From positions 186,001 through 250,000 of the forward strand of contig NZ_CP035534.1 of NCBI RefSeq assembly GCF_009068765.1: a stretch of 64,000 nt of DNA, read 5' to 3'. A program made the position numbers and the translations under genes. This document shows, piece after piece, positions 14,766 to 25,530 of this stretch (position 1 is the first letter of the stretch; each line of letters starts with the position of its first letter). The notes beneath the pieces were generated by a model, which saw only the letters and a list, made by a program, of their open reading frames with translations, made no database searches and had not been told where the DNA came from. The DNA comes from Sulfurimonas hydrogeniphila. Lineage in GTDB: Bacteria; Campylobacterota; Campylobacteria; Campylobacterales; Sulfurimonadaceae.

Positions 14766-15053
14766 ATGACAAAACGTGATGTACTTAATTATTTAAAAGA
14801 GCATTACCCCGAGTTCCATAAACAATATGCGGTTGAAAAAATTGGATTGTTCGGAAGTTATGCAAGAGATGAAGCAACACCGCAGAGTGATATAGATATT
14901 TTTGTAAAAATGAGACCTAATATGTTTGATATGATTGCAATAAAAGAGCAGATAGAAGAAGATTTGCATATAAAAGTGGATATTGTGCGTGAACATAAAA
15001 ATATGAAACCTTTTTTCCTGGAAATGATTCAAAAAGATTTGATTTATGCTTAA
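14766..15053 (+). CDS. mntA: MntA-type nucleotidyltransferase antitoxin
   Basis: A 95-residue minimal nucleotidyltransferase. The family signature GS-X10-DXD is complete: Gly30-Ser31, then Asp42 and Asp44, with a third acidic residue expected in the VDIV strand. In the type VII HEPN/MNT systems studied so far, MntA adds AMP units to a tyrosine of the HEPN toxin and silences it. Its last eight bases overlap the HEPN gene, the usual tight coupling of such pairs. The surprise is the location between addB and addA. Confidence 0.85.
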   Translation: MTKRDVLNYLKEHYPEFHKQYAVEKIGLFGSYARDEATPQSDIDIFVKMRPNMFDMIAIKEQIEEDLHIKVDIVREHKNMKPFFLEMIQKDLIYA

Positions 15054-15426
15054 TGATAAACAAAGAATGATTTTATCCACACTTGATGATATACGAATAT
15101 CATTAGAACTCATTATTCAAAGATGCCAAAAAATAAATTCGAGTGATGATTTTTTAGAAAACGATGAGGGACTTTTAAAACTTGATAGTATCTCAATGCG
15201 ACTAATTGCTATTGGAGAGGGTTTTAAAAATATTGATAAATTGTCTGAGGGAAAAATATTGCCTCAGTATCCAAATATTCCGTGGAGACAGGTAAAGGGA
15301 GTGCGAGATGTTTTATCTCATCACTATTTTGATTTGGATGCGGAGGTAATATTTGAAATTTGTCAAAATGATATACACAATCTTTTAGAAGCAACTGTTG
15401 AAATAATAAAAGATCTTCATGTCTAA
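15046..15426 (+). CDS. hepT: HEPN-domain RNase toxin (DUF86/HepT family)
   Basis: A 126-residue all-helical protein with the HEPN active-site motif RX4HXY present as Arg87, His92 and Tyr94 (RDVLSHHY). The arginine and histidine are the RNase residues of the family, and the tyrosine is the residue modified by MntA in characterised pairs. It overlaps mntA by 8 nt upstream and addA by 8 nt downstream, so all three are translationally linked. Catalytic and control residues look intact, so the toxin is probably functional. Confidence 0.85.
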   Translation: MLNDKQRMILSTLDDIRISLELIIQRCQKINSSDDFLENDEGLLKLDSISMRLIAIGEGFKNIDKLSEGKILPQYPNIPWRQVKGVRDVLSHHYFDLDAEVIFEICQNDIHNLLEATVEIIKDLHV

Positions 15427-18136
15427 GTTTAAAAATAATCTTGCCTACGAAGCGAGTGCGGGGAGCGGGAAGACTTTTATGCTTGTTGTGCGCTATCTTT
15501 CTCTACTTTTTAAAGGTGCGGAGCCTGCGAAGGTTTTGGCTCTTACTTTTACAAATAAAGCGGCTGCCGAGATGAGTGAGCGGATTGTCGAGACACTGCA
15601 GGCATTGGAATCACGTATGGAATTGCATGAAATTGCCAAAGAGTGTGGGATGTCTGACAAAGAGATTTTGGCAAAACGGTCGCAGATTTTGGCCGAGTTT
15701 TTAAATGCACATACGAAGATTATGACGATAGACAGCTTTTTCGCTCAGATTTTGAGAAAATTTTCTCTGTATGCCTTTTTGATGCCCGATTTTTCAACGG
15801 CGAATGCCCAGCATGAAGTCAAACTGATGTCTCGTTTTTTAAAAGAAGTCAGTGTTGCCAACAAACGCAAGACACTTATCAGTCTCTCTTTGGAATCAAA
15901 CAAACGTGTCAGTGACATTTTTGCGCTGCTGGATGATTTTTATCTTAAAAAAGAGGAACTTTCTCATCTGAAGTTTCAAAAAAAATCGATACAGGCGTAT
16001 GAAGAGGAGGCGATGCAAGGGCTCTCTCTTTTGCAAAATATTGTAAAAAACTGCAAAGAGGCATCGGTGACACTGCAAAAAGCCGTTGTTGCCCAAAATT
16101 TTGAAGCACTCAAAGCAAAAACATGGGTATATAAAGAGAGCCTGAACTACTGGGTCTTTAAAAAATGCTTCAGCCCTGCAATGGATGCGGCTCTGTTGCA
16201 AATTCAGCGTGCCGTACAGTCGCATGCAAAGGCAAAAGAGCAGAATTTTTTCTATGCCCTGAATGAACTTGTTACACTTTACAAAAAGGCAAAAAAAGCA
16301 CTCTATGTAGATGAGGGAGAACTCAGTTTTTCGGATGTGACGCTTCTGGTGTATGAGATTTTGCACCGTCTCAATGAGAGCGAATTTCTGTACTTTCGCC
16401 TCGATGCAACGATAGAACATATGCTGCTTGATGAATTCCAAGATACCAGCATATTGCAGTATGAGATTTTAAAACCGCTTATCACAGAGATAACTTCGGG
16501 TGTGGGTGTCTGCAGCGAGGGAAGTTTTTTCTTTGTGGGGGATGTTAAACAGTCTATTTACCGTTTTAGGGGAGGTGTGTCGGCTCTTTTTGGGGAGGTG
16601 GCAAAAGAGCACCGCACCGAGGTAAAAAAACTTTTGACAAACTACCGTTCGCAAAAAGAGGTTATAGCGTTTGTCAACAGAGTCTTTGCGGATAAAATAA
16701 AAAACTACACTCCTCAGCTTGTTCGCAAAGAGGCACAGGGCGGTTTTGTCGAAGTGATTGCAGATGAGGAACTTTTGGATGCACTGGTTGAGCAGGTAAA
16801 GCGCTTGATAGATCTTGGCGCAGATGTGAATGACATTGCCGTTTTATGTGCGACTAACAGTGACGGACAGGTCATTAAAAACGTACTTGACGAACAAAAT
16901 ATAGAGGTTGTGACTGAGACAACCACAAAGCTTATCAACCAAAGAAGTGTCAAGGCTGTTTTGGAGTATTTGAAATATCTCTATTTCAGAGAAGAGATTT
17001 ACAGACAGAACTTTTTTGCTTTGATAAATCAGGAGGTCAGGGCTGTTGCCACTGTAGATTTTAACAGTGTCAAGCTTGTAGATGTTGTGAAGAGATGTAT
17101 AGAAGAGTACAGACTTTTTCAAGATGATTTTCACCTGATTCGCTTTTTGAATGCTGTATCCAAATATGCAGATATTGAAGCGCTTTTGTTTGAGTATGAA
17201 AGACTTGATACTTCTGCAGCGGCGGCTGATATCAGTGGAGTGAGGGTTTTAACGGTACATAAATCAAAAGGCCTGGAGTATGAGCATGTGATTGTCATGG
17301 ACAGACTGAAAAAGGCTCCTGCCCCAAGAGATGCCATTATTTACAATTATGACGGCATCAAACTGCAAAATCTTTATCTGAGAACAAAAAACAGAGAGCT
17401 TATTGACCATGATTATGCCTATGCTCTTTCCAAAGAAAAAGAGCTTATACGAGAAGACAGTTTGAATGCCCTGTATGTTGCTTTTACAAGAGCAAGAGAA
17501 AACTTGATCATCCTTGCAAAACCAAAAGATTCCATATTTGCATTGCTGGATTTACAACCTCAAAGCTTCGGAGAACTGCGCTCTACATGTAAAGCCAAAA
17601 ACATACCGCAGGCATATAAAAAACTTTCGTTTGAAAATATCTATTACGGAACACAGAGTGATTTGTTGGCATTAGAAAAACACAATGAAGAAGATTTGCA
17701 AGCCATTAATTTTGGAATTGCTTTGCACTATACTCTGGAGATGATGCAGGAGTTTACACAAGAAGCGCTTGCTTGTGCCAAAGATATGATGCTGAACAAA
17801 TATGGCTTTATGCTCACAGAGCCAGAGATAGATGATATACAGCAGAGAATAGAGCGGCTTGTTGCTGCACCGGAGTTTTTGACTTTGACCCGGGGAGTAT
17901 GCTATAAAGAAAAGGCTCTGCGCTATAAGAACAATCTGCGTTATCTTGATTTGTTGGTCAAACATGAAAAGGGAGAGTGGAGTGTGATAGACTACAAAAG
18001 TGCGATGCATTTTACCGAGGAGCATCGCAAGCAGGTTCGATACTATGTAAAAGCAGTGAAAGAGATAACGGGAGATGAAGTGCGTGGCTATATCTGCTAT
18101 ATCTTGGAAGATGCCGTTAAAATAGAGACCGTTTAA
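15419..18136 (+). CDS. addA: AddA/RecB-like UvrD-type helicase-nuclease
   Basis: A 905-residue superfamily 1 helicase with a C-terminal nuclease, the motor subunit of the AddAB complex. Helicase motifs in order are the Walker A SAGSGKT (residues 13-19), LTFTNKAAAEM, IDSFFAQIL, LLDEFQDTS, FVGDVKQSIYRFRGG, LTVHKSKGLEYE and LYVAFTRARENL. The nuclease motif WSVIDYKSAMHF is near the C terminus. Its ATG lies inside the end of hepT (8-nt overlap), so expression is coupled to the toxin-antitoxin pair. A diverged copy of its last ~60 bases lies at 39203-39273. Confidence 0.9.
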   Translation: MSKFKNNLAYEASAGSGKTFMLVVRYLSLLFKGAEPAKVLALTFTNKAAAEMSERIVETLQALESRMELHEIAKECGMSDKEILAKRSQILAEFLNAHTKIMTIDSFFAQILRKFSLYAFLMPDFSTANAQHEVKLMSRFLKEVSVANKRKTLISLSLESNKRVSDIFALLDDFYLKKEELSHLKFQKKSIQAYEEEAMQGLSLLQNIVKNCKEASVTLQKAVVAQNFEALKAKTWVYKESLNYWVFKKCFSPAMDAALLQIQRAVQSHAKAKEQNFFYALNELVTLYKKAKKALYVDEGELSFSDVTLLVYEILHRLNESEFLYFRLDATIEHMLLDEFQDTSILQYEILKPLITEITSGVGVCSEGSFFFVGDVKQSIYRFRGGVSALFGEVAKEHRTEVKKLLTNYRSQKEVIAFVNRVFADKIKNYTPQLVRKEAQGGFVEVIADEELLDALVEQVKRLIDLGADVNDIAVLCATNSDGQVIKNVLDEQNIEVVTETTTKLINQRSVKAVLEYLKYLYFREEIYRQNFFALINQEVRAVATVDFNSVKLVDVVKRCIEEYRLFQDDFHLIRFLNAVSKYADIEALLFEYERLDTSAAAADISGVRVLTVHKSKGLEYEHVIVMDRLKKAPAPRDAIIYNYDGIKLQNLYLRTKNRELIDHDYAYALSKEKELIREDSLNALYVAFTRARENLIILAKPKDSIFALLDLQPQSFGELRSTCKAKNIPQAYKKLSFENIYYGTQSDLLALEKHNEEDLQAINFGIALHYTLEMMQEFTQEALACAKDMMLNKYGFMLTEPEIDDIQQRIERLVAAPEFLTLTRGVCYKEKALRYKNNLRYLDLLVKHEKGEWSVIDYKSAMHFTEEHRKQVRYYVKAVKEITGDEVRGYICYILEDAVKIETV

Positions 18137-18155
18137 ACGGGTAGAAGAGGTATTA

Positions 18156-18184
18156 AAAACAGGTTCTTGTGCAGAACCTGTTTT
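18156..18184. terminator. Bidirectional terminator after addA
   Basis: A perfect 11-bp stem (AAAACAGGTTC / GAACCTGTTTT) encloses a seven-base loop between the convergent addA and cheY-like genes. A and T runs on both flanks make it work as a terminator on either strand. Confidence 0.85.
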
Positions 18185-18189
18185 GCAGT

Positions 18190-18567
18190 TTAGACGATGA
18201 CTGTTTTGATTTTTGCAATCAAATCGTCATTGCGTATAGGTTTCATTAAAAATCCATTTGCGCCGCACTCCAAAGCTTCTGCTTTTTTTGTTTCATCTGT
18301 TGTAAGAACCAAAATAGGAAGTTGACGCAGACTTTCATCGGCACGCACGACTTTAAGCATATCGATACCACCCATGATAGGCATAATGATATCCAAGAGT
18401 ATCAAGTCAATATCATCACGGCTTTTTAAAACACCTATGGCATCTGAGCCGTTTTTTGCTTCGACAACCTCTTTTACATTTCCGCTTTTCATCAGCATAG
18501 ATTTTAAAAGCTTCAAATTAATGAGATCATCATCAACTGCAAGCACAACCAAATCAGTTTTTTTCAT
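18190..18567 (-). CDS. CheY-like single-domain response regulator
   Basis: A 125-residue stand-alone receiver domain. The acidic pocket (Asp12-Asp14), the phosphoacceptor Asp59 (LLLDI), the switch threonine near 88-89 and Lys108 (FLMKPI) are all present, so it should be phosphorylated. It is the last gene of the signalling operon, 10 nt after the hybrid kinase, and likely takes phosphate from that kinase or the double-Hpt protein. Its output partner is unknown; it carries no DNA-binding domain. Confidence 0.9.
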   Translation of the reverse strand: MKKTDLVVLAVDDDLINLKLLKSMLMKSGNVKEVVEAKNGSDAIGVLKSRDDIDLILLDIIMPIMGGIDMLKVVRADESLRQLPILVLTTDETKKAEALECGANGFLMKPIRNDDLIAKIKTVIV

Positions 18568-18577
18568 AGTTATTTCC

Positions 18578-21500
18578 TTAAATAAATTTTTCTATAACAA
18601 GTCTCAGCAAGTCTTTGTTTATAATATTTTTAATCGTTTCATCTACATATTTTGAATCTTCTTCACTTACAGGTACAGCCGGATCTACAATCAATACCAG
18701 GTAGGTGGAGAGATTGTTTTTTTGACTTTTCTCTTTGACTGACCGGGCGAAATCTTTCAAGTCTAAAGTTTCTGTCTCTTTGTCAAACAATATAAGTTTA
18801 TAGCTCTCCTCTTCAATTTTCTTTTGCAATTCATCTATATTGTCTATGACTTCGTAAGTATATCCAAGTGAACTGAGAATTTTTGTAAAAAGCTTTGTTT
18901 CAAAGGGACTTTTTTTAGCAAGAAGAATATCAGCTTTGTATTTTGCCGGAACTTGTTCCGGTACTGCTTTTTCTTCTTTTTCCGGTACTGCTTTTTCTTC
19001 TTCTTTTGCTTCTTCTTCCTGCTGTTGTGCTTTTTCTGTTTTCTTTTCTTCTGTCTTTGCATCATTGACATCCACAATGTGGTCTGCTAAAAAATGATTC
19101 AGCAGTGTTATGATCTCTTCACGTACTAATGGTTTTGTTGTATATTCATCAAGTCCGGCTGCTAAAAATCTTTCACGATCACCCTTGAGTGCATTTGCTG
19201 TTAAAGCGATTATTGGAACATGGGGCTGGTTGTATACCTCTTCATATTCAAGAATCTCCTGCGTCGCTTCTATACCATCAAGGAAAGGCATTTGGATATC
19301 CATAAAAATCAGATCATAGTTATTGTCTTTGCGTTTTTGAAATGCTTCAAGTCCATTGGATGCGATATCAACAGTGAGTCCCAAGTCTTCAAGTGTCCGT
19401 TTTATCAGTTTTTGGTTGATTATATTGTCTTCTGCAACAAGTACTTTTGCTGCAAATTTAGACGAACCGACTGTAAAGACTTTGTTTGAAGTTGTTTTTA
19501 ATTTTGGTGCTGTAAAATTTTGACTTTGGTAATTTTCAAGGGCTGCTTTTAATTTGGTATTATTTAATGGCTCATATATGGTCTTAAATATCTCAATACC
19601 CATAGAGTCGATTTTTCTCATAAAATAAGATTTTGTAAGAAGTATCAGCTTTTGCGGAAGAGTGCTGTATGCTTTTAATTCTTCTTCGGTTGCATATTCA
19701 TAATCTACAAAAAGCATATCATAATTTATTTGTCGCTGGAGTGTTTCACTTTCATTTTTGTTTTTAAATGTTGTATAGCTTACGCCGTAAAAATCAAGAT
19801 ACTCTTTGAGATAGGTGTCTTGTCTCTTTGTTTTATGAGCAGACTCTAAAATTAAAGCATTGATTCCCATATATTGTTCTTTGGCACTTTCGCTGATAAC
19901 TTCTATCTCTTCAAAATCAAGTGTAAAGAAGAAAGTTGTTCCTTCTCCCGGTTCACTGTGCAGATCAAGTTGTCCGCCCATCAGTTCAATAAAACGCGCA
20001 GAAATTGTAAGACCAAGACCTGTACCGCCGTATTTACGTGTAATGGATGTGTCTGCCTGTGAAAAAGCTTCAAAAATTCTGGATTTTTGCTCGCTTGTAA
20101 CACCGATACCGCTGTCTTGCACTTCAAATCTGATACGTGTTGTTCCTTCCTGAGGTGATTGCAGTTTTCTGATATCGACATTGATAGCTCCGGAACTGCT
20201 TGTAAACTTCACAGCATTAGAGAGCAGGTTAATAAGAACTTCTTTAATTTTTGTCGGGTCACCTTTGAGCGGCTGTTCAAGTTCAGGGTCAATAAAACAT
20301 CCCAGATCAATGTGCTTTTCACTTGCACGGACAGCATATACATCAACGGCACTTTCAAACTCTTCTATAGGATTAAAGATTACATCTTCAATTTCAAGTT
20401 TATTGCTCTCGATTTTTGAAAGGTCAAGAATATTGTTGATAATTTCAAGCAGATTTTCTGAAGATTTTTCAATAATTTCAACAAACTCCTGTTGCTCTTC
20501 TTTGAGTCCTGTATCTTTAAGAAGTTCCGTAAAGCCAACAATTCCGTTGAGCGGTGTACGAATTTCATGGGACATATTTGCAAGAAACATCGATTTTGCT
20601 TCACTCGCTTCCTGTGCTGCTTCTTTATCCCGTTTTGTCTGTTCAATGATTTTTTCCAAAAGACTGTAGGCTTCTTCTGTCCCTTTGGCTGTATGAAGAT
20701 TGATCTCAACTGCTTTGTCGCTTTCATTCGTGTCTTCTGCAACTTTTCTGAGGACACCTTCAAGGTTGTGAATATTTCTGGCAATTTCATTAGAGAGCAA
20801 AAAGCCCAAAACTGCCAATATGATTGAAATCAGCCAAATTGTCAATGTAATGGTCAAAAACTGTAAAGCTTCTGTTTTTACCTGAACGGCTCTGGTGTCC
20901 ATGGCACTCAGGACAACATTTTCTCCCTCTGAAATAAGGTTGCTTTTTTCTGAAAGCATGGCAAACCAGACACCCGGGTTTGTTTCATACTCTCCGCTTG
21001 CTGCAGCAATTAAAATAGAAGCACGTTCTGAGTTAAGGTCATCAAAGAGCTCAAGAGCATCATCACTTTTAAATAGTTCATCAAGCTTTTTCTCAAGATT
21101 TTTGTCTTTGAGGTTATAGAAGTTGATAGCATCGGCTTTTGCGATTAATGAGAGCCATTGATTTATCTCTTCTTCTTCCATTTCTGTTGAACGGGCAAGG
21201 GTATAAGAGATAAAGTCACGTTCATCTGCAGTATAGGCATTTGCACGTACCAGCGAAATATAAACAGAAGCATAAGTGTTGATTTTACTGTCAAGCTGGT
21301 GCGACGTAATCGTTTCAAGCTGCTTGATAATTATTTTTTCTGCTTTACCGTATACCTTATTGTATATATCTTCAAAGTTTATTTTATGTGTATCAACCAA
21401 TGTTCTGGCATGTTTTATACTTTGCATCGCATTTTTTAATGCCGTGTCTTTTTGTGAAAGTGCCTGTAGCTTTTGAAAATAGAGTTTTTCCTGTTTGTCA

Positions 21501-21760
21501 ACGATCTTTCTCTGCTTTAAGAGTGATTTTAATGTATTTGGTGAGGAATTACCAAGGTACATTACGGTCATACCTCTTTCCCGGGAAACATTTCTCAGAA
21601 GGTTGTTGAGTTGCCTGTTTGTGGAAAGTTTATCCTGAAGAAGTTGTGCTGCTTTATAGTTTTCGTATGAGTTATATACAAAATAACTTGTAATAGAAAT
21701 TAAAATAATAATCGGTAATAAACTAATAAGTCGAAGTCTGTTTTTTAGTCCTATTTGCAT
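18578..21760 (-). CDS. NIT-domain hybrid sensor histidine kinase
   Basis: A 1060-residue inner-membrane kinase. Membrane helices near residues 8-30 and 300-324 flank a periplasmic region resembling the NIT (nitrate/nitrite sensing) domain, with ERGMTVMYLG near residue 61. Then come HisKA with the phospho-His398 (NMSHEIRTPLNG), an HATPase domain with KYGGTGLGL, a degenerate receiver-like segment (about 630-740), a complete receiver (about 772-892; Asp821, Lys876), a low-complexity KEEKAVPE linker, and a C-terminal receiver-like domain lacking the acidic pair. The NIT assignment suggests nitrate, nitrite or a related ligand, but this is inferred. The start follows the Hpt gene stop by three bases. 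Confidence 0.85.
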   Translation of the reverse strand: MQIGLKNRLRLISLLPIIILISITSYFVYNSYENYKAAQLLQDKLSTNRQLNNLLRNVSRERGMTVMYLGNSSPNTLKSLLKQRKIVDKQEKLYFQKLQALSQKDTALKNAMQSIKHARTLVDTHKINFEDIYNKVYGKAEKIIIKQLETITSHQLDSKINTYASVYISLVRANAYTADERDFISYTLARSTEMEEEEINQWLSLIAKADAINFYNLKDKNLEKKLDELFKSDDALELFDDLNSERASILIAAASGEYETNPGVWFAMLSEKSNLISEGENVVLSAMDTRAVQVKTEALQFLTITLTIWLISIILAVLGFLLSNEIARNIHNLEGVLRKVAEDTNESDKAVEINLHTAKGTEEAYSLLEKIIEQTKRDKEAAQEASEAKSMFLANMSHEIRTPLNGIVGFTELLKDTGLKEEQQEFVEIIEKSSENLLEIINNILDLSKIESNKLEIEDVIFNPIEEFESAVDVYAVRASEKHIDLGCFIDPELEQPLKGDPTKIKEVLINLLSNAVKFTSSSGAINVDIRKLQSPQEGTTRIRFEVQDSGIGVTSEQKSRIFEAFSQADTSITRKYGGTGLGLTISARFIELMGGQLDLHSEPGEGTTFFFTLDFEEIEVISESAKEQYMGINALILESAHKTKRQDTYLKEYLDFYGVSYTTFKNKNESETLQRQINYDMLFVDYEYATEEELKAYSTLPQKLILLTKSYFMRKIDSMGIEIFKTIYEPLNNTKLKAALENYQSQNFTAPKLKTTSNKVFTVGSSKFAAKVLVAEDNIINQKLIKRTLEDLGLTVDIASNGLEAFQKRKDNNYDLIFMDIQMPFLDGIEATQEILEYEEVYNQPHVPIIALTANALKGDRERFLAAGLDEYTTKPLVREEIITLLNHFLADHIVDVNDAKTEEKKTEKAQQQEEEAKEEEKAVPEKEEKAVPEQVPAKYKADILLAKKSPFETKLFTKILSSLGYTYEVIDNIDELQKKIEEESYKLILFDKETETLDLKDFARSVKEKSQKNNLSTYLVLIVDPAVPVSEEDSKYVDETIKNIINKDLLRLVIEKFI

Positions 21761-21763
21761 TGC

Positions 21764-23230
21764 CTATTCCTCTTCTTTTGAAATTGCTGTAAGTATATTT
21801 TCTATCTCTTTTACAGTTTGTGTCAGCGTCTCTTTATCTGTAGAGTGTGTGAGTGTTTCAAGTTCATTTGTAAAAGTGTGCATTCTCATATTGTCACTCA
21901 TTCCTTTTAATTTTAAGGCCTGCCGCTTCAGTGCAGGGTAGTCTTGGGTGGCGAGAGCATCATTTATTTTTGCAATTATAGCATGTGCTTCTTTTATAAA
22001 GTCTTCAAAGAGTTCATTGAAACTCTCTAAATCCAGGCCTATCTCATTGGCAATTTTTTCTTTAGAATATTTTTTCTCATTTTCTGATTCTTCCTGCGTT
22101 TCTGTCTCTTCCTGCGTCTCTGTCTCTTCCTGCGTCTCTGTCTCTTCCTGAATTTCCTGTTCTTCTTGAATCTCCGGCTCTTCTTTAAATTCCAAAGTCA
22201 GTTCAGGTTCATCATCTTTAAAAGTGAGAATTTCTTCAGATTCCTGTGGTGCAACAAAATCATCATCATAAAGTTCCGGAATTTCAATTTTTTGAGGCAC
22301 TTCATCATCTTTTATGGTGGCAAGATCTTCTTCACCGGCTAATTTTGCAATAATTCTGTAAAAATCATCCAGGTTTGTCTGTATGATATCGACATCAGAA
22401 GTAGCATTTATAATTGAAAGTACTTCATGTGCATCTTCAATACGAAGATTCGCTGCGACTCCTTTAAGCTTGTGCGAAAGAGTTTTAACATTATCAATAT
22501 TTCCTTCTTCAAGTGATTTGTAAAGTTCATCTTTAAAGTCGTTTGCCTGGGTTATAAAATCCTGTATAAACTCTTCAATCAAATCAAGTGGCAAACCAAG
22601 CTCTTTTGATGCGATATTGGGGTCAAAAACATAGGTGCTTTTCGGTTTTTGAGGAGATTCCTGAACGAAAGGCTCTGTCTTTGTTACTTCCGGGGTTTCG
22701 ATGCTTAAGTCACCTACATCCAGCATTGCATCAAGGTCTTCTTTCTCTTGTGTCTCCACATGTAACGGAGTGTCATACTCATCTTGTATGACTGTTGGTT
22801 CTTCTGTTGTCTTAAGGATTGGTTGTGACTGCTGTGGAGATACTGTTTCCGGTATTGTTCTTTGCGTAATATCTCCTGAAATAGCATCATACTCCTGCGC
22901 TGTAAGTGTTCGCAGATTGTTTAAGTGTACTATATAGGCTTTTTGAGTCGGATTGTCTACAAGGTAGGCATTTGTAATTGTAATTATTGCTTTGTAGTTT
23001 TTTGAATTGGCATTAATGATGACTTTGGATTCTTCATTAGACTCTGCACATGTTATATAGTCAATCCAGTGCACATGCTGAAAATTATGTATATATCCTG
23101 GTGTTTTTACAAACAAATCTGCGAAATCTGTCACTTCTGCGCGCAGATCAGCCAAATCTTTATATCCCAGTGTATGCAGGTTTTTTTCGTCAATACCCAA
23201 AAACTCTTTTTGAAAATTATAAATTAGCAT
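21764..23230 (-). CDS. Double-Hpt phosphotransfer protein with PAS-like N terminus
   Basis: A 488-residue soluble protein. A PAS-like N-terminal region (about 1-115) is followed by a linker and a first Hpt domain (about 205-295) whose phospho-acceptor is His253 in LSHKLKG. A long acidic repetitive linker (about 350-385, TQEE repeats) leads to a second Hpt-like domain (about 390-485), where the equivalent residue is Leu439 (ALKLKG). Only the first domain can carry phosphate. It lies between the PAS gene and the hybrid kinase and is the obvious phosphorelay partner of that kinase and the CheY-like protein. Confidence 0.75.
   Translation of the reverse strand: MLIYNFQKEFLGIDEKNLHTLGYKDLADLRAEVTDFADLFVKTPGYIHNFQHVHWIDYITCAESNEESKVIINANSKNYKAIITITNAYLVDNPTQKAYIVHLNNLRTLTAQEYDAISGDITQRTIPETVSPQQSQPILKTTEEPTVIQDEYDTPLHVETQEKEDLDAMLDVGDLSIETPEVTKTEPFVQESPQKPKSTYVFDPNIASKELGLPLDLIEEFIQDFITQANDFKDELYKSLEEGNIDNVKTLSHKLKGVAANLRIEDAHEVLSIINATSDVDIIQTNLDDFYRIIAKLAGEEDLATIKDDEVPQKIEIPELYDDDFVAPQESEEILTFKDDEPELTLEFKEEPEIQEEQEIQEETETQEETETQEETETQEESENEKKYSKEKIANEIGLDLESFNELFEDFIKEAHAIIAKINDALATQDYPALKRQALKLKGMSDNMRMHTFTNELETLTHSTDKETLTQTVKEIENILTAISKEEE
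22080..22160 (-). repeat. 18-bp tandem repeat inside the Hpt gene
   Basis: The unit TCTTCCTGCGTCTCTGTC (plus-strand sense) recurs about three to four times with slight change. It encodes the ETQEET linker between the two Hpt domains. In-frame unit changes would alter only linker length. Confidence 0.8.
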
Positions 23231-23241
23231 TCTTCCATCCC

Positions 23242-23658
23242 TTATTCCTCTTCTGTCTCAAGCATCTTTTTATATGTTTCTTCTGTTTCTTGAATATCTT
23301 TGCGAGAGGCTGCTTTTCTGGCAGCAATATAACCTGTTATATTTTCATCATTATCTCTGATTGGCAGAATTTCTGTCTCTACCCAGTAGTACAGACCGTC
23401 TTTTCTAAGGTTTTTTACAAGTCCGTTCCAAGCCTGTCCACTTTGAATAGTTTCCCACATTTTTGCAAATATGCTGCGCGGCATATCCGGATGTCTGAGT
23501 ATGTTGTGGGGTTGTCCTACCAGTTCATCGGCTTTATAACCGGATACACTGCAAAATAGTTTGTTTGCATAGGTAATAACACCTTTTAAATCTGTCTGAG
23601 AAATAATGACATTTCCGTCAAAAAAATACTCTTCGTCTACAGGGATAATTTTGCTCAT
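23242..23658 (-). CDS. Aer-like PAS sensor protein
   Basis: A 138-residue protein made of one PAS domain. It has the Aer/CetB-type signature around HPDMPRSIFAKMW (about residues 56-68) and WVETEILPI, features of FAD-binding energy-taxis sensors. It has no membrane or signalling domain, so it must act through a partner, as CetB does in Campylobacter. It is the first gene of the operon ending in the CheY-like protein, 11 nt before the double-Hpt gene, so redox sensing into this relay is a reasonable inference. Confidence 0.75.
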   Translation of the reverse strand: MSKIIPVDEEYFFDGNVIISQTDLKGVITYANKLFCSVSGYKADELVGQPHNILRHPDMPRSIFAKMWETIQSGQAWNGLVKNLRKDGLYYWVETEILPIRDNDENITGYIAARKAASRKDIQETEETYKKMLETEEE

Positions 23659-23727: not shown

Positions 23728-25530
23728 TTATTTATAAAAATTTTTGATGGTTTTTGCATCTTTTGTATTTAAAAGTGAACGAATATCATCAAATGTGGCA
23801 CTTTTGAGTGCTTCAAAGGTGCCATAATGATTGAGCAGTTTTTGAATTTTTGCAGCCGATATTCCATGTAAACTTAAAAGTCTGCTCTCCTGGTCAAGTT
23901 TGAGTTTTGTTTTTTTGTGAAATGTGATCGCTGCTCTGTGTGCTTCATCCCGTAAATTTTGAACCCACTGCAGACGTTTGTCACTTGTTTTGAGTCTGAA
24001 AATTTTCTCTTTTGTATAGAGAATATCCTGAGCATTTCCTTTGGCCCGGTGTGCCTTGGCATCAACTTTTTCTTTTGAAATGGCTATGACATCAAGGGCG
24101 ATACCGTTGGATTCAAGTATGTCAAGTGCAAGTTTAAGCAGTGTTGCTCCTCCGTCGAGTATCCACAGGTCCGGCGGTGAATTTTTAGAAAAACTCTCTA
24201 CTCTTTTTGTAAGTGTTTCGCGCATTTGGGAGTACTCGTCTTTTGCCTCCAGATGATAGGTTCTGTAGGATTTCTTGTCAAACTTTGCATTTTCATATAC
24301 GACCATAGCTCCGACTGTTGCAACACCGGACATATGGGAATTGTCAAATATTTCCACTCTGTTTGGAATTTTTTGCAATTGACACAGTTCCTGGAGTTCT
24401 TCGAGTATTTTGACATTAAGTGTTTCTTTGTCTTTTTTCAATAACTCCGCTGCATTTAATTTTGCCAAAGCAATCAAGTCTTTTTTCTTTCCTCTTTGAG
24501 GGATGAGAATGTGTGCTTTTTGACCAAATACTTTTGTGAGGTGATGCGCTATAAGTTCTTTGTCCTCAAAACTCTGAGGAAGAAGAATCGGAGCAACGAT
24601 GGGAGGCTTTTCATCTTTGTAAAATCCAAGCAGTGCTCTTGAATAGAGCTCATTCAAATCCAAGCCTTCATGAAGCTGCAGATACTCATGAGAAGAAGAG
24701 ATTATTTTGCCGTGTCGCATAAATATTTTTACAACTACCGCTCTTTTTTCAGAATTTTCTATTGCAAAAATATCATAATGTTCATTTGTGGCAAAATCAA
24801 TTTCGCTTTTAATCTGGGACCGTTCTATTCTCTCTATGGTGTCTCTGAGCTCGGCGGCTTCTTCAAAGCGCAACTCCTGGGCATAAAACTCCATTTTTTC
24901 TTCCAGTTTGCCAAGAAGCAGTTTTTTGTTTTTAATCAGCTGCGATGCAAGTGTTACTTCCTGCTGATAACGCTCTTTGCTGATTGGCAGTTCACAGGGA
25001 CCGAGACATTTGTCTATCTGATAGTAGAGACAAAGTTTTTTTGACTTCAGACAGGATTTTTTCTGTACAAGTTTGCAAATATCATAAATGGAGTTGAGAA
25101 TATCTCTCGCACCGACAGAGTAGGGACCATAGTAGGTGATATCTTTGGAGTTAATCACCTTTCTTGTAATGTCGAACCGAGGGTACTCCTGAGAGTTGTC
25201 TATATAAATGTAGGGGTAGGTTTTGTCATCACGGAGCAAAATATTGTATTTCGGACCCAGCTGTTTGATCAGTGAATTTTCAAGTATGAGCGCATCATGT
25301 TCGGAATTTACAATGATATAATCCATGGAAACGGTTTGGTTTATCATTTTTGAGATGCGCAAAGAGAGCTGCGGATTTGCACAAAGTTCGGGAGTAAACT
25401 GCCAGTAGCTTTTTACACGCTTGGCAAGGTTCTTGGCTTTGCCCACATACAGGAGATGGCCGTTTTTGTCAAAATACTGATAGACTCCCGGGTTGTTCGG
25501 CAGTTGTTGGATTTTTTCTTTAAGTGTCAT
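23728..25530 (-). CDS. uvrC: Excinuclease ABC subunit C
   Basis: The incision subunit of nucleotide excision repair. The N-terminal GIY-YIG nuclease domain is visible ([19 protein letters not shown]), then a cysteine-containing region ([13 protein letters not shown]), a UVR helix near residue 200, the RNase H-like endonuclease domain with FDNSHMSG, and a C-terminal helix-hairpin-helix ([13 protein letters not shown]). The 600-residue length is normal. Its start overlaps the upstream DUF721 gene by 11 nt. Confidence 0.97.

What the first reader, a model, noticed from the sequence alone, without database searches (positions are those of the whole stretch)
18190..23658. Four-gene phosphorelay with one dead Hpt and pseudo-receivers
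A PAS (Aer/CetB-like) protein, a double-Hpt protein, a NIT-type hybrid kinase and a lone CheY are encoded in one operon. The second Hpt has Leu439 in place of the phospho-histidine, and two of three receiver-like regions in the kinase lack acidic-pocket residues. This suggests a relay with built-in binding or docking domains that carry no phosphate, linking a redox sensor to nitrate-type input.
Basis: partly seen in the sequence, partly recalled or inferred. Interest (0 to 1): 0.5.

Follow-up and report, generated by a model that had tools for sequence, protein, structure and literature searches.

The report
Conserved phosphorelay with dead Hpt domain
Next to the DNA-repair gene uvrC, this bacterium (a Sulfurimonas relative) and many of its kin keep a signalling relay in which one phosphate-passing domain and two phosphate-receiving domains have lost their chemistry but are still maintained, probably as docking parts.

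Summary
Four tightly packed genes (18190-23658, minus strand) encode an Aer-like PAS protein, a protein with a PAS-like N-terminus and two Hpt domains (HPTP), a NIT-type hybrid kinase and a single-domain response regulator. Hpt1 has His253; Hpt2 has Leu439 at that place. REC1 and REC3 are pseudo-receivers; REC2 is canonical.

It is no local quirk. uvrC-(PAS)-HPTP-kinase-(RR) recurs in several families of the order. In 92 two-Hpt relatives domain 1 has His in 92, domain 2 in 1; residues around the lost His stay conserved and dN/dS is 0.17 (linkers 0.27-0.33). In family f4 the dead domain comes first; in f20, f7 and f22 no His-bearing Hpt was found in HPTP. REC1 Lys is Glu in 109 of 110 kinases.

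Best reading: phosphate runs H398 > D821 > H253 > D59, with Hpt2, REC1 and REC3 as phosphate-free docking or allosteric modules. The docking partners are unresolved. Taxis is unsupported, nitrate input possible but untested. Pseudo-receivers are well known; an Hpt lineage that lacks its His almost without exception is a new variant.

The parts
23242..23658 (-). Aer/CetB-like single PAS protein, 138 aa
   Evidence: Pfam PAS_3/PAS/PAS_9; phmmer to Aer PAS 8dik E 4e-35, sharing the QPHN..RHPDMP..W stretch
21764..23230 (-). HPTP, 488 aa: PAS-like N-terminal domain (1 to about 118), Hpt1 (about 195-300), Hpt2 (about 385-488)
22472..22474 (-). codon of His253, phospho-site of Hpt1
   Evidence: His in 92 of 92 two-domain relatives
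21914..21916 (-). codon of Leu439, at the phospho-site position of Hpt2 (pseudo-Hpt)
   Evidence: not His in 91 of 92 two-domain relatives
18578..21760 (-). hybrid histidine kinase, 1060 aa: TM, NIT (54-287), TM, HisKA (H398), HATPase, REC1 (pseudo, about 632-748), REC2 (canonical, 773-887), REC3 (pseudo, about 943-1059)
18190..18567 (-). single-domain response regulator, 125 aa; canonical pocket D12/D13, D59, T89, K109
   Evidence: Pfam Response_reg E 1e-23; residues counted by eye on the sequence printed
23728..25530 (-). uvrC, 69 nt upstream on the same strand; the conserved neighbour
   Evidence: Pfam UvrC domains; adjacency in relatives

Best explanation
This is a four-step phosphorelay. 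The membrane NIT kinase autophosphorylates on H398, passes phosphate to D821 of REC2, then to H253 of Hpt1 in HPTP, and finally to D59 of the lone response regulator. Hpt2, REC1 and REC3 carry no phosphate and serve as docking or allosteric modules. REC1 sits between the catalytic domain and REC2, as in ShkA, and probably gates the kinase. Hpt2 keeps a conserved motif around the lost His and most likely binds a receiver (REC3, REC1, REC2 or the free RR), tethering HPTP so that its PAS-like domain, and the separate Aer-like PAS protein, can modulate transfer. Shown by computation: domains, residues, predicted folds, conservation and purifying selection. Inferred: direction of phosphate flow, docking, partners, signal and output.
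For: Canonical residues in HisKA, REC2, Hpt1 and RR; HisKA His 110 of 110 and REC2 Asp 110 of 110 kinases. Hpt1 His in 92 of 92, Hpt2 His in 1 of 92, with neighbours of the lost His conserved (K+3 0.89, G+4 0.89, S+6 0.96, N+8 0.93, R+10 0.90) while the site's commonest residue, Leu, is 0.36. dN/dS 0.17 for Hpt2 against 0.27 and 0.33 for linkers, 0.08 for Hpt1 and 0.06 for the N-terminal domain, from 10 independent pairs. REC1 Lys position Glu in 109 of 110; REC3 Lys at the second acidic position in 106 of 110. Foldseek ranks full-length ShkA (6qrj) first for the kinase model. In three loci where no kinase, RR or PAS gene is found beside HPTP (L110, L150, L152), HPTP ends after Hpt1 and Hpt2 is gone; among genus-set loci with two readable Hpt domains 82 of 82 have the kinase. 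One deletion could explain the loss of Hpt2, kinase and RR together.
Against: No biochemistry. The co-divergence test is unspecific: 21 pairs were tested, REC3-Hpt2 (r 0.17, p 0.007) does not survive correction for that, Hpt2 correlates more with NIT (r 0.23), REC1-Hpt2 shows nothing (0.04), and the presumed partners Hpt1 and RR show nothing either (-0.02), so its power is doubtful. Hpt2 evolves about twice as fast as Hpt1, which also fits a looser structural role. In f20, f7 and f22 no live Hpt was found in HPTP, so Hpt1 cannot be the relay step there. Lone His-bearing Hpt proteins exist in this genome and in the f20 and f7 genomes read and could be the true partner of REC2. L110 and L150 keep Hpt1 without the kinase. 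No complex was modelled.
Confidence: 0.55

Rival explanations
1. Hpt2 is a competitive inhibitor, as plant AHP6 is thought to be (recalled): it occupies REC2 or the RR and holds back phosphotransfer until a signal on the PAS-like domain releases it.
For: Same facts as for docking: conserved motif without His, purifying selection. It sits in the same chain as the live Hpt, so it would compete at high local concentration. In f20, f7 and f22 only dead Hpt domains, or none, were found, which fits a pure inhibitor or adaptor.
Against: No binding data; no co-divergence of Hpt2 with REC1 or RR (Hpt2 with REC2 was not tested, since REC2 was a control).
Confidence: 0.2
2. Hpt2 is a structural or dimerisation bundle that no longer touches any receiver; the conserved motif reflects packing.
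For: The predicted fold is kept at weaker constraint than Hpt1. The Pfam Hpt model barely sees three f20 domains tested (13.4-16.4 bits, cut-off 24.6).
Against: The conserved residues K+3 and G+4 lie where Hpt domains meet receivers (recalled), next to a site free to vary.
Confidence: 0.15
3. Hpt2 and the pseudo-receivers are decaying leftovers with no function.
For: The phospho-site residue varies widely (14 residue types over 92). A few loci look degenerate: L110, L150 and L152 have lost Hpt2, and L152 has Arg at the Hpt1 site.
Against: Retention in many genera, dN/dS 0.17, near-invariant substitutions such as REC1 E-P and REC3 K.
Confidence: 0.07
4. The relay's true Hpt is a separate lone Hpt protein; HPTP is an accessory regulator of the kinase.
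For: HPTP of f20, f7 and f22 shows no His-bearing Hpt, yet f20 keeps the kinase, and the RR in the 8 loci that reach far enough. Lone His-bearing Hpt genes are seen in this genome, in five f20 genomes and in two f7 genomes read.
Against: In the genus set and other f1 genera Hpt1 keeps an invariant His beside the kinase gene.
Confidence: 0.25

Closest known systems
ShkA / GacS / BarA-type hybrid kinases with a pseudo-receiver between CA and REC2 (PMC7010744, passages seen)
   Same: DHp-CA-pseudoREC1-REC2 order; ShkA 6qrj is the top Foldseek match. The paper says such pseudo-receivers are widespread and names GacS/BarA and RcsC.
   Different: NIT sensor, an additional C-terminal pseudo-receiver REC3, and Hpt in a separate protein. 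BarA model 423 bits against a cut-off of 890, and two other places in this genome score 399 and 359. c-di-GMP binding was not tested.
Plant pseudo-HPt proteins (listing; AHP6 by name and function recalled)
   Same: Hpt fold without the phospho-His
   Different: Here bacterial, usually in tandem with a live Hpt and a PAS-like domain, in an operon with its probable kinase
Bacterial pseudo-TCS domains surveyed by Bourret et al. 2025 (PMC12632262; abstract and sections 6 and 19 read)
   Same: They report that 0.9% (90 of 10,312) of sampled bacterial Hpt domains lack the His, and discuss pseudo-receivers acting by protein-protein contact
   Different: The sections read name no conserved pseudo-Hpt family; here loss of His is the rule for one domain in a wide group
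E. coli uvrY-uvrC (BarA-UvrY system; pairing with BarA recalled)
   Same: uvrC lies next to a regulator gene of a hybrid-kinase relay
   Different: UvrY is annotated as a DNA-binding activator upstream of uvrC; here the relay lies downstream and its RR has no output domain. Possibly coincidence.
Aer / CetB PAS proteins (CetB recalled)
   Same: PAS protein matches Aer PAS 8dik, E 4e-35
   Different: No chemoreceptor among the proteins scanned around it; FAD binding untested

Membership tests
Multistep phosphorelay (hybrid HK - REC - Hpt - RR) | Catalytic His/Asp/His/Asp and pocket residues present in HisKA, REC2, Hpt1, RR | tested here: met
Multistep phosphorelay (hybrid HK - REC - Hpt - RR) | Phosphate actually moves H398 > D821 > H253 > D59 | not testable with these tools
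   Needs phosphotransfer assays
Pseudo-Hpt | Hpt fold | tested here: met
   AlphaFold; VIA-align to HptB Z 13.0 over 385-488, at the edge of VIA's caution for helical bundles but with Hpt chains in the first eight rows; Pfam Hpt match over residues 406-483
Pseudo-Hpt | No phospho-accepting His at the site | tested here: met
   L439; no His in 91 of 92 relatives
Pseudo-Hpt | Retained by selection rather than decaying | tested here: met
   dN/dS 0.17, motif conservation
Pseudo-Hpt | Binds a receiver without phosphotransfer | not testable with these tools
Pseudo-receiver (REC1, REC3) | Receiver fold with key catalytic residues missing | tested here: met
   Five alternating strands and helices predicted for each; residues missing. 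Both keep Asp, so they are not aspartate-less. Pfam sees REC3 only below cut-off (14.7 against 30.2).
ShkA-type c-di-GMP-gated kinase | c-di-GMP binding to REC1; DDR motif in the REC1-REC2 linker | not tested
   The ShkA row covered only query 145-266 (linker end and REC2); by eye no DDR in the linker (sequence)
BarA (NF008318) | Score over curated cut-off | tested here: not met
   423 bits against 890
NIT nitrate/nitrite sensor | NIT domain | tested here: met
   PF08376, E 2e-23
NIT nitrate/nitrite sensor | Nitrate-binding pocket | tested here: inconclusive
   N-terminal half aligns to NasR 4akk (E 1e-4). Conserved E180/R181 falls on NasR QER, of which E175/R176 were predicted pocket residues (residue matching inferred). 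Binding not shown.
Aer/CetB energy-taxis module | Aer-like PAS | tested here: met
Aer/CetB energy-taxis module | Cognate methyl-accepting signalling partner in the operon | tested here: not met
   None among the 8 proteins scanned around and in the operon; elsewhere in the genome not looked for

The most novel reading that the evidence does not exclude
HPTP founds a bacterial pseudo-Hpt adaptor family: a PAS-like sensor fused to a phosphate-free Hpt that binds the receivers of a cognate hybrid kinase and regulates it. The phosphate-free binder, not the phosphotransfer Hpt, is the ancestral core of the protein. The live Hpt and the Aer-like PAS gene form a second module often kept or lost together, so that in families f20, f7 and f22 HPTP works with no phospho-His at all.
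Probability: 0.3. Interest if true: 0.7.

Novelty: new variant of a known kind. Interest (0 to 1): 0.5.

Why it matters
Bourret et al. [quoted passage not shown] A lineage of Hpt domains that lacks the His almost without exception yet is kept by selection, next to a kinase carrying two likewise conserved pseudo-receivers, offers a natural system for testing what phosphate-free two-component domains do. The families without a live Hpt give a ready comparison. The Pfam Hpt model misses the f20 members (no HPTP match in the f20 genomes; three below cut-off), so surveys based on it would undercount such proteins.

Tried and rejected
A BarA/UvrY counterpart suggested by uvrC linkage: E. coli uvrY-uvrC adjacency was confirmed, but the BarA score is below cut-off and hardly specific in this genome. 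Anti-phage defence: only a weak PADLOC match at kinase residues 742-854 (E 2.5e-5). Co-divergence as a way to name Hpt2's partner: weak and unspecific. A tree of 104 Hpt domains (14 two-domain proteins of the genus set drawn at random plus 5 named ones, overlap possible, with the other families) puts most dead domains in one group (53 rows, support 81/90) and the genus-set Hpt1 and f4 second domains in another (39 rows, 90/85, with two dead f23 rows on long branches). Columns are few, the bootstrap had not settled, and dead f4 domains group with live f18 ones (86/86). So a single origin of the dead domain is suggested, not shown. The PDB profile search with the PAS-like domain gave one hit at E 0.07; Pfam gives PAS matches for 1 of 14 members; Foldseek lists PAS/LOV chains at E above 0.2, so 'PAS-like' is a fold-level guess. 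A PDB search with a short NIT fragment gave nothing useful. A NasR paper was searched for R49 and R236, residues I recalled; neither term occurs. Terminator after the RR: the scan lists none there, though an inverted repeat is visible by eye at about 18155-18186. Literature: among the titles and abstract starts listed (15 of 10,085; 15 of 60; 3 of 3; 8 of 16; 8 of 48; 1 of 1) I saw no description of this operon or of a conserved bacterial pseudo-Hpt; (Sulfurimonas + histidine kinase + Hpt domain) returned 0. The library is open-access only. Seen of papers: PMC12632262 abstract, sections 6 and 19; passages of PMC7010744, PMC11481889, PMC7496416 and PMC6682613; the others as listings.

Full report
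What is there. The four ORFs lie on the minus strand with gaps of 11, 3 and 10 nt; uvrC is 69 nt upstream on the same strand. The window lies in a single-contig genome of 2.34 Mb; the 80 named relatives kept (of 153) are mostly titled Sulfurimonas. Pfam gives PAS, two Hpt stretches, NIT + HisKA + HATPase_c + one Response_reg, and a single-receiver protein. HPTP also has an N-terminal domain of about 118 residues that Pfam does not name in this protein; AlphaFold gives it an alpha/beta fold at high confidence, and 1 of 14 homologues matches PAS models.

The dead Hpt. H253 and L439 occupy the same place in two domains with the same helix layout. VIA-align matches 198-300 to Hpt 3myf (Z 12.6, rmsd 2.5, 103 aligned) and 385-488 to HptB 7c1i (Z 13.0, rmsd 2.5, 104 aligned); VIA cautions that under about 13 can be common for helical bundles, but the first eight rows are Hpt chains. 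Six other Hpt domains read in this genome keep the His.

Conservation of the dead Hpt. I collected HPTP proteins from fetched loci: 161 hits, 137 after removal of identical ones, fragments included. The genus set (same-genus handles plus all loci, a few of which carry family- or order-level titles) has 91, of which 82 show two readable domains; the other 9 have one domain, a cut domain or none. With 10 from other f1 genera this makes 92: domain 1 has His in 92 of 92, domain 2 in 1 of 92 (L053). Domain 2 has L 33, I 29, V 6, M 5, S 5, T 3, R 3, A 2, and one each of H, Q, N, Y, F, G. The site's commonest residue reaches 0.36, whereas +3 K, +4 G, +5 M, +6 S, +8 N and +10 R are at 0.89-0.96; +1 K is 0.77 and +7 D 0.59. 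Named and unnamed loci overlap, so near-identical species can count twice. In 10 independent pairs dN/dS is 0.06 (N-terminal domain), 0.08 (Hpt1), 0.17 (Hpt2), 0.33 and 0.27 (linkers).

Other families. In f4 the order is dead then live in 5 of 5; f6 the same in 1 of 1. In f20 the one Hpt found is dead in 9 of 9; in f7 dead in 5 of 7 with none found in 2; f22 dead in 1 of 1; f10 (1), f11 (2) and f23 (2) also show no His but are distant; f12 (1) shows none on a protein cut by the contig end. f18 has a live first domain in 7 of 7; its middle domain aligns with a gap in 4 of the 6 three-domain proteins, so its His there is uncertain. Scores with the family model are 54-74 bits in f20, 28-41 in f7 and 30 in f22, but that model was rebuilt with such hits included; with the first models L068 of f20 scored 21 and 32 bits. 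The Pfam Hpt model stays under cut-off for three f20 proteins (13.4-16.4 against 24.6), whereas the f22 protein passes it (29.0).

Gene neighbourhood. uvrC-(PAS)-HPTP-kinase-RR recurs in most loci long enough to show it; the f7 loci show no RR, and the f10, f23 and one of two f11 loci show no uvrC there. The N-terminal domain is found in 164 of 298 genomes of the order at E<=0.001, many of these weak and possibly other PAS domains; strong matches run from 1e-53 to about 1e-19. Where uvrC is in view, a PAS gene was called in 94 loci: 93 have a live Hpt and the other is broken by unread bases. Of 21 loci with no live Hpt seen and no PAS gene, 19 are in f20, f7, f12, f22 and f11; f12 and some others are incomplete. 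Eleven loci have a live Hpt without a called PAS gene: 5 in f18, 5 in the genus set, 1 in f4; the f4 one (L067) does have PAS and L126 and L128 leave room for it. So PAS and live Hpt often travel together, f18 being the clear exception. A PAS gene elsewhere in these genomes was not looked for.

A natural deletion. In L110, L150 and L152 no kinase, RR or PAS gene is found beside HPTP, and HPTP ends soon after Hpt1, so Hpt2 is missing with the kinase; L152 also has Arg at the Hpt1 site. Two-domain HPTP occurs with a kinase in the locus in 82 of 83, the other being cut by the contig end. This fits Hpt2 serving the kinase, but one deletion could have removed Hpt2, kinase and RR together, and Hpt1 staying without the kinase argues against a simple relay in those strains.

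Kinase. In 110 kinases (one per locus, over 900 aa, identical ones removed): HisKA His 110; REC2 Asp 110, Lys 110, acidic pair 109; REC1 Lys position Glu 109, following Pro 110, Asp 101; REC3 Asp 107 with 3 gaps, Lys at the second acidic position 106. The REC3 Thr and Lys columns are less surely aligned. Both pseudo-receivers usually keep the Asp but lack the pocket that would use it. AlphaFold predicts five alternating strands and helices for each of the three, and full-length ShkA is the first Foldseek match. REC1 is a known kind of pseudo-receiver (PMC7010744 passages).

Who docks to whom. With 68 genomes and UvrC, DHp-CA and REC2 distances controlled, partial r is REC1-REC3 0.39, REC1-Hpt1 0.39, NIT-REC1 0.34, NIT-REC3 0.25, NIT-Hpt2 0.23, REC1-RR 0.18, REC3-Hpt2 0.17 (p 0.007), REC1-Hpt2 0.04, Hpt1-RR -0.02, over 21 pairs tested without correction. 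The pairing is not settled.

Alternative relay step. This genome has a 133-aa lone Hpt with His beside a trpA-like gene, and 136-aa ones stand beside trpA-like genes in the five f20 genomes read; two f7 genomes have 135-aa ones elsewhere (gene names by eye). Another His-bearing Hpt of 171 aa lies near an htpG-like gene (L207). In families without a live HPTP Hpt such a protein could carry the phosphate.

Input and output. The PAS protein resembles Aer PAS (8dik; 3ewk ranks first with two stretches). NIT is real, its ligand open. The RR has no output domain. The signal, the output and the reason for uvrC linkage remain unknown.

Verdict. Observation confirmed, interpretation partly supported. 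The relay itself is ordinary; the conserved pseudo-Hpt, and families in which no live Hpt was found beside it, are the new part.

Noticed in passing
14766-15426 (+): Nucleotidyltransferase + HepT-like pair, a HepT/MntA-type toxin-antitoxin candidate, directly before a UvrD-like helicase (15419-18136) that is convergent with the operon.
   Followed up: no
L067 5229-5630, L068 5443-5841: In f4, f6, 6 of 9 f20, 3 of 7 f18 and 1 of 7 f7 loci a gap of about 400 bp separates HPTP and kinase; in the two loci read it encodes a 132-133 aa Sel1/TPR-like protein (Sel1 above cut-off in one, below in the other) with a signal-peptide-like start by eye. A possible periplasmic partner.
   Followed up: partly
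L197 4157-4558, L198-L202: Lone Hpt with intact His beside a trpA-like gene, with panB- and ruvB-like genes nearby (named by eye), shared by this genome and five f20 genomes.
   Followed up: partly
L207 2362-2877, L208 2520-3035: 171-aa protein with an HPTP-Hpt1-like domain (AHKNLGVARNLRI) next to an htpG-like gene (named by eye).
   Followed up: no
L053 3530-5200: The one two-domain relative with His in the second Hpt (HKLKGMSNNMR); a natural test case.
   Followed up: no
L110, L150, L152: HPTP ends after Hpt1, and no PAS gene, kinase or RR is found beside it; two of the three records are titled as symbionts. A possibly decaying or reduced system.
   Followed up: partly
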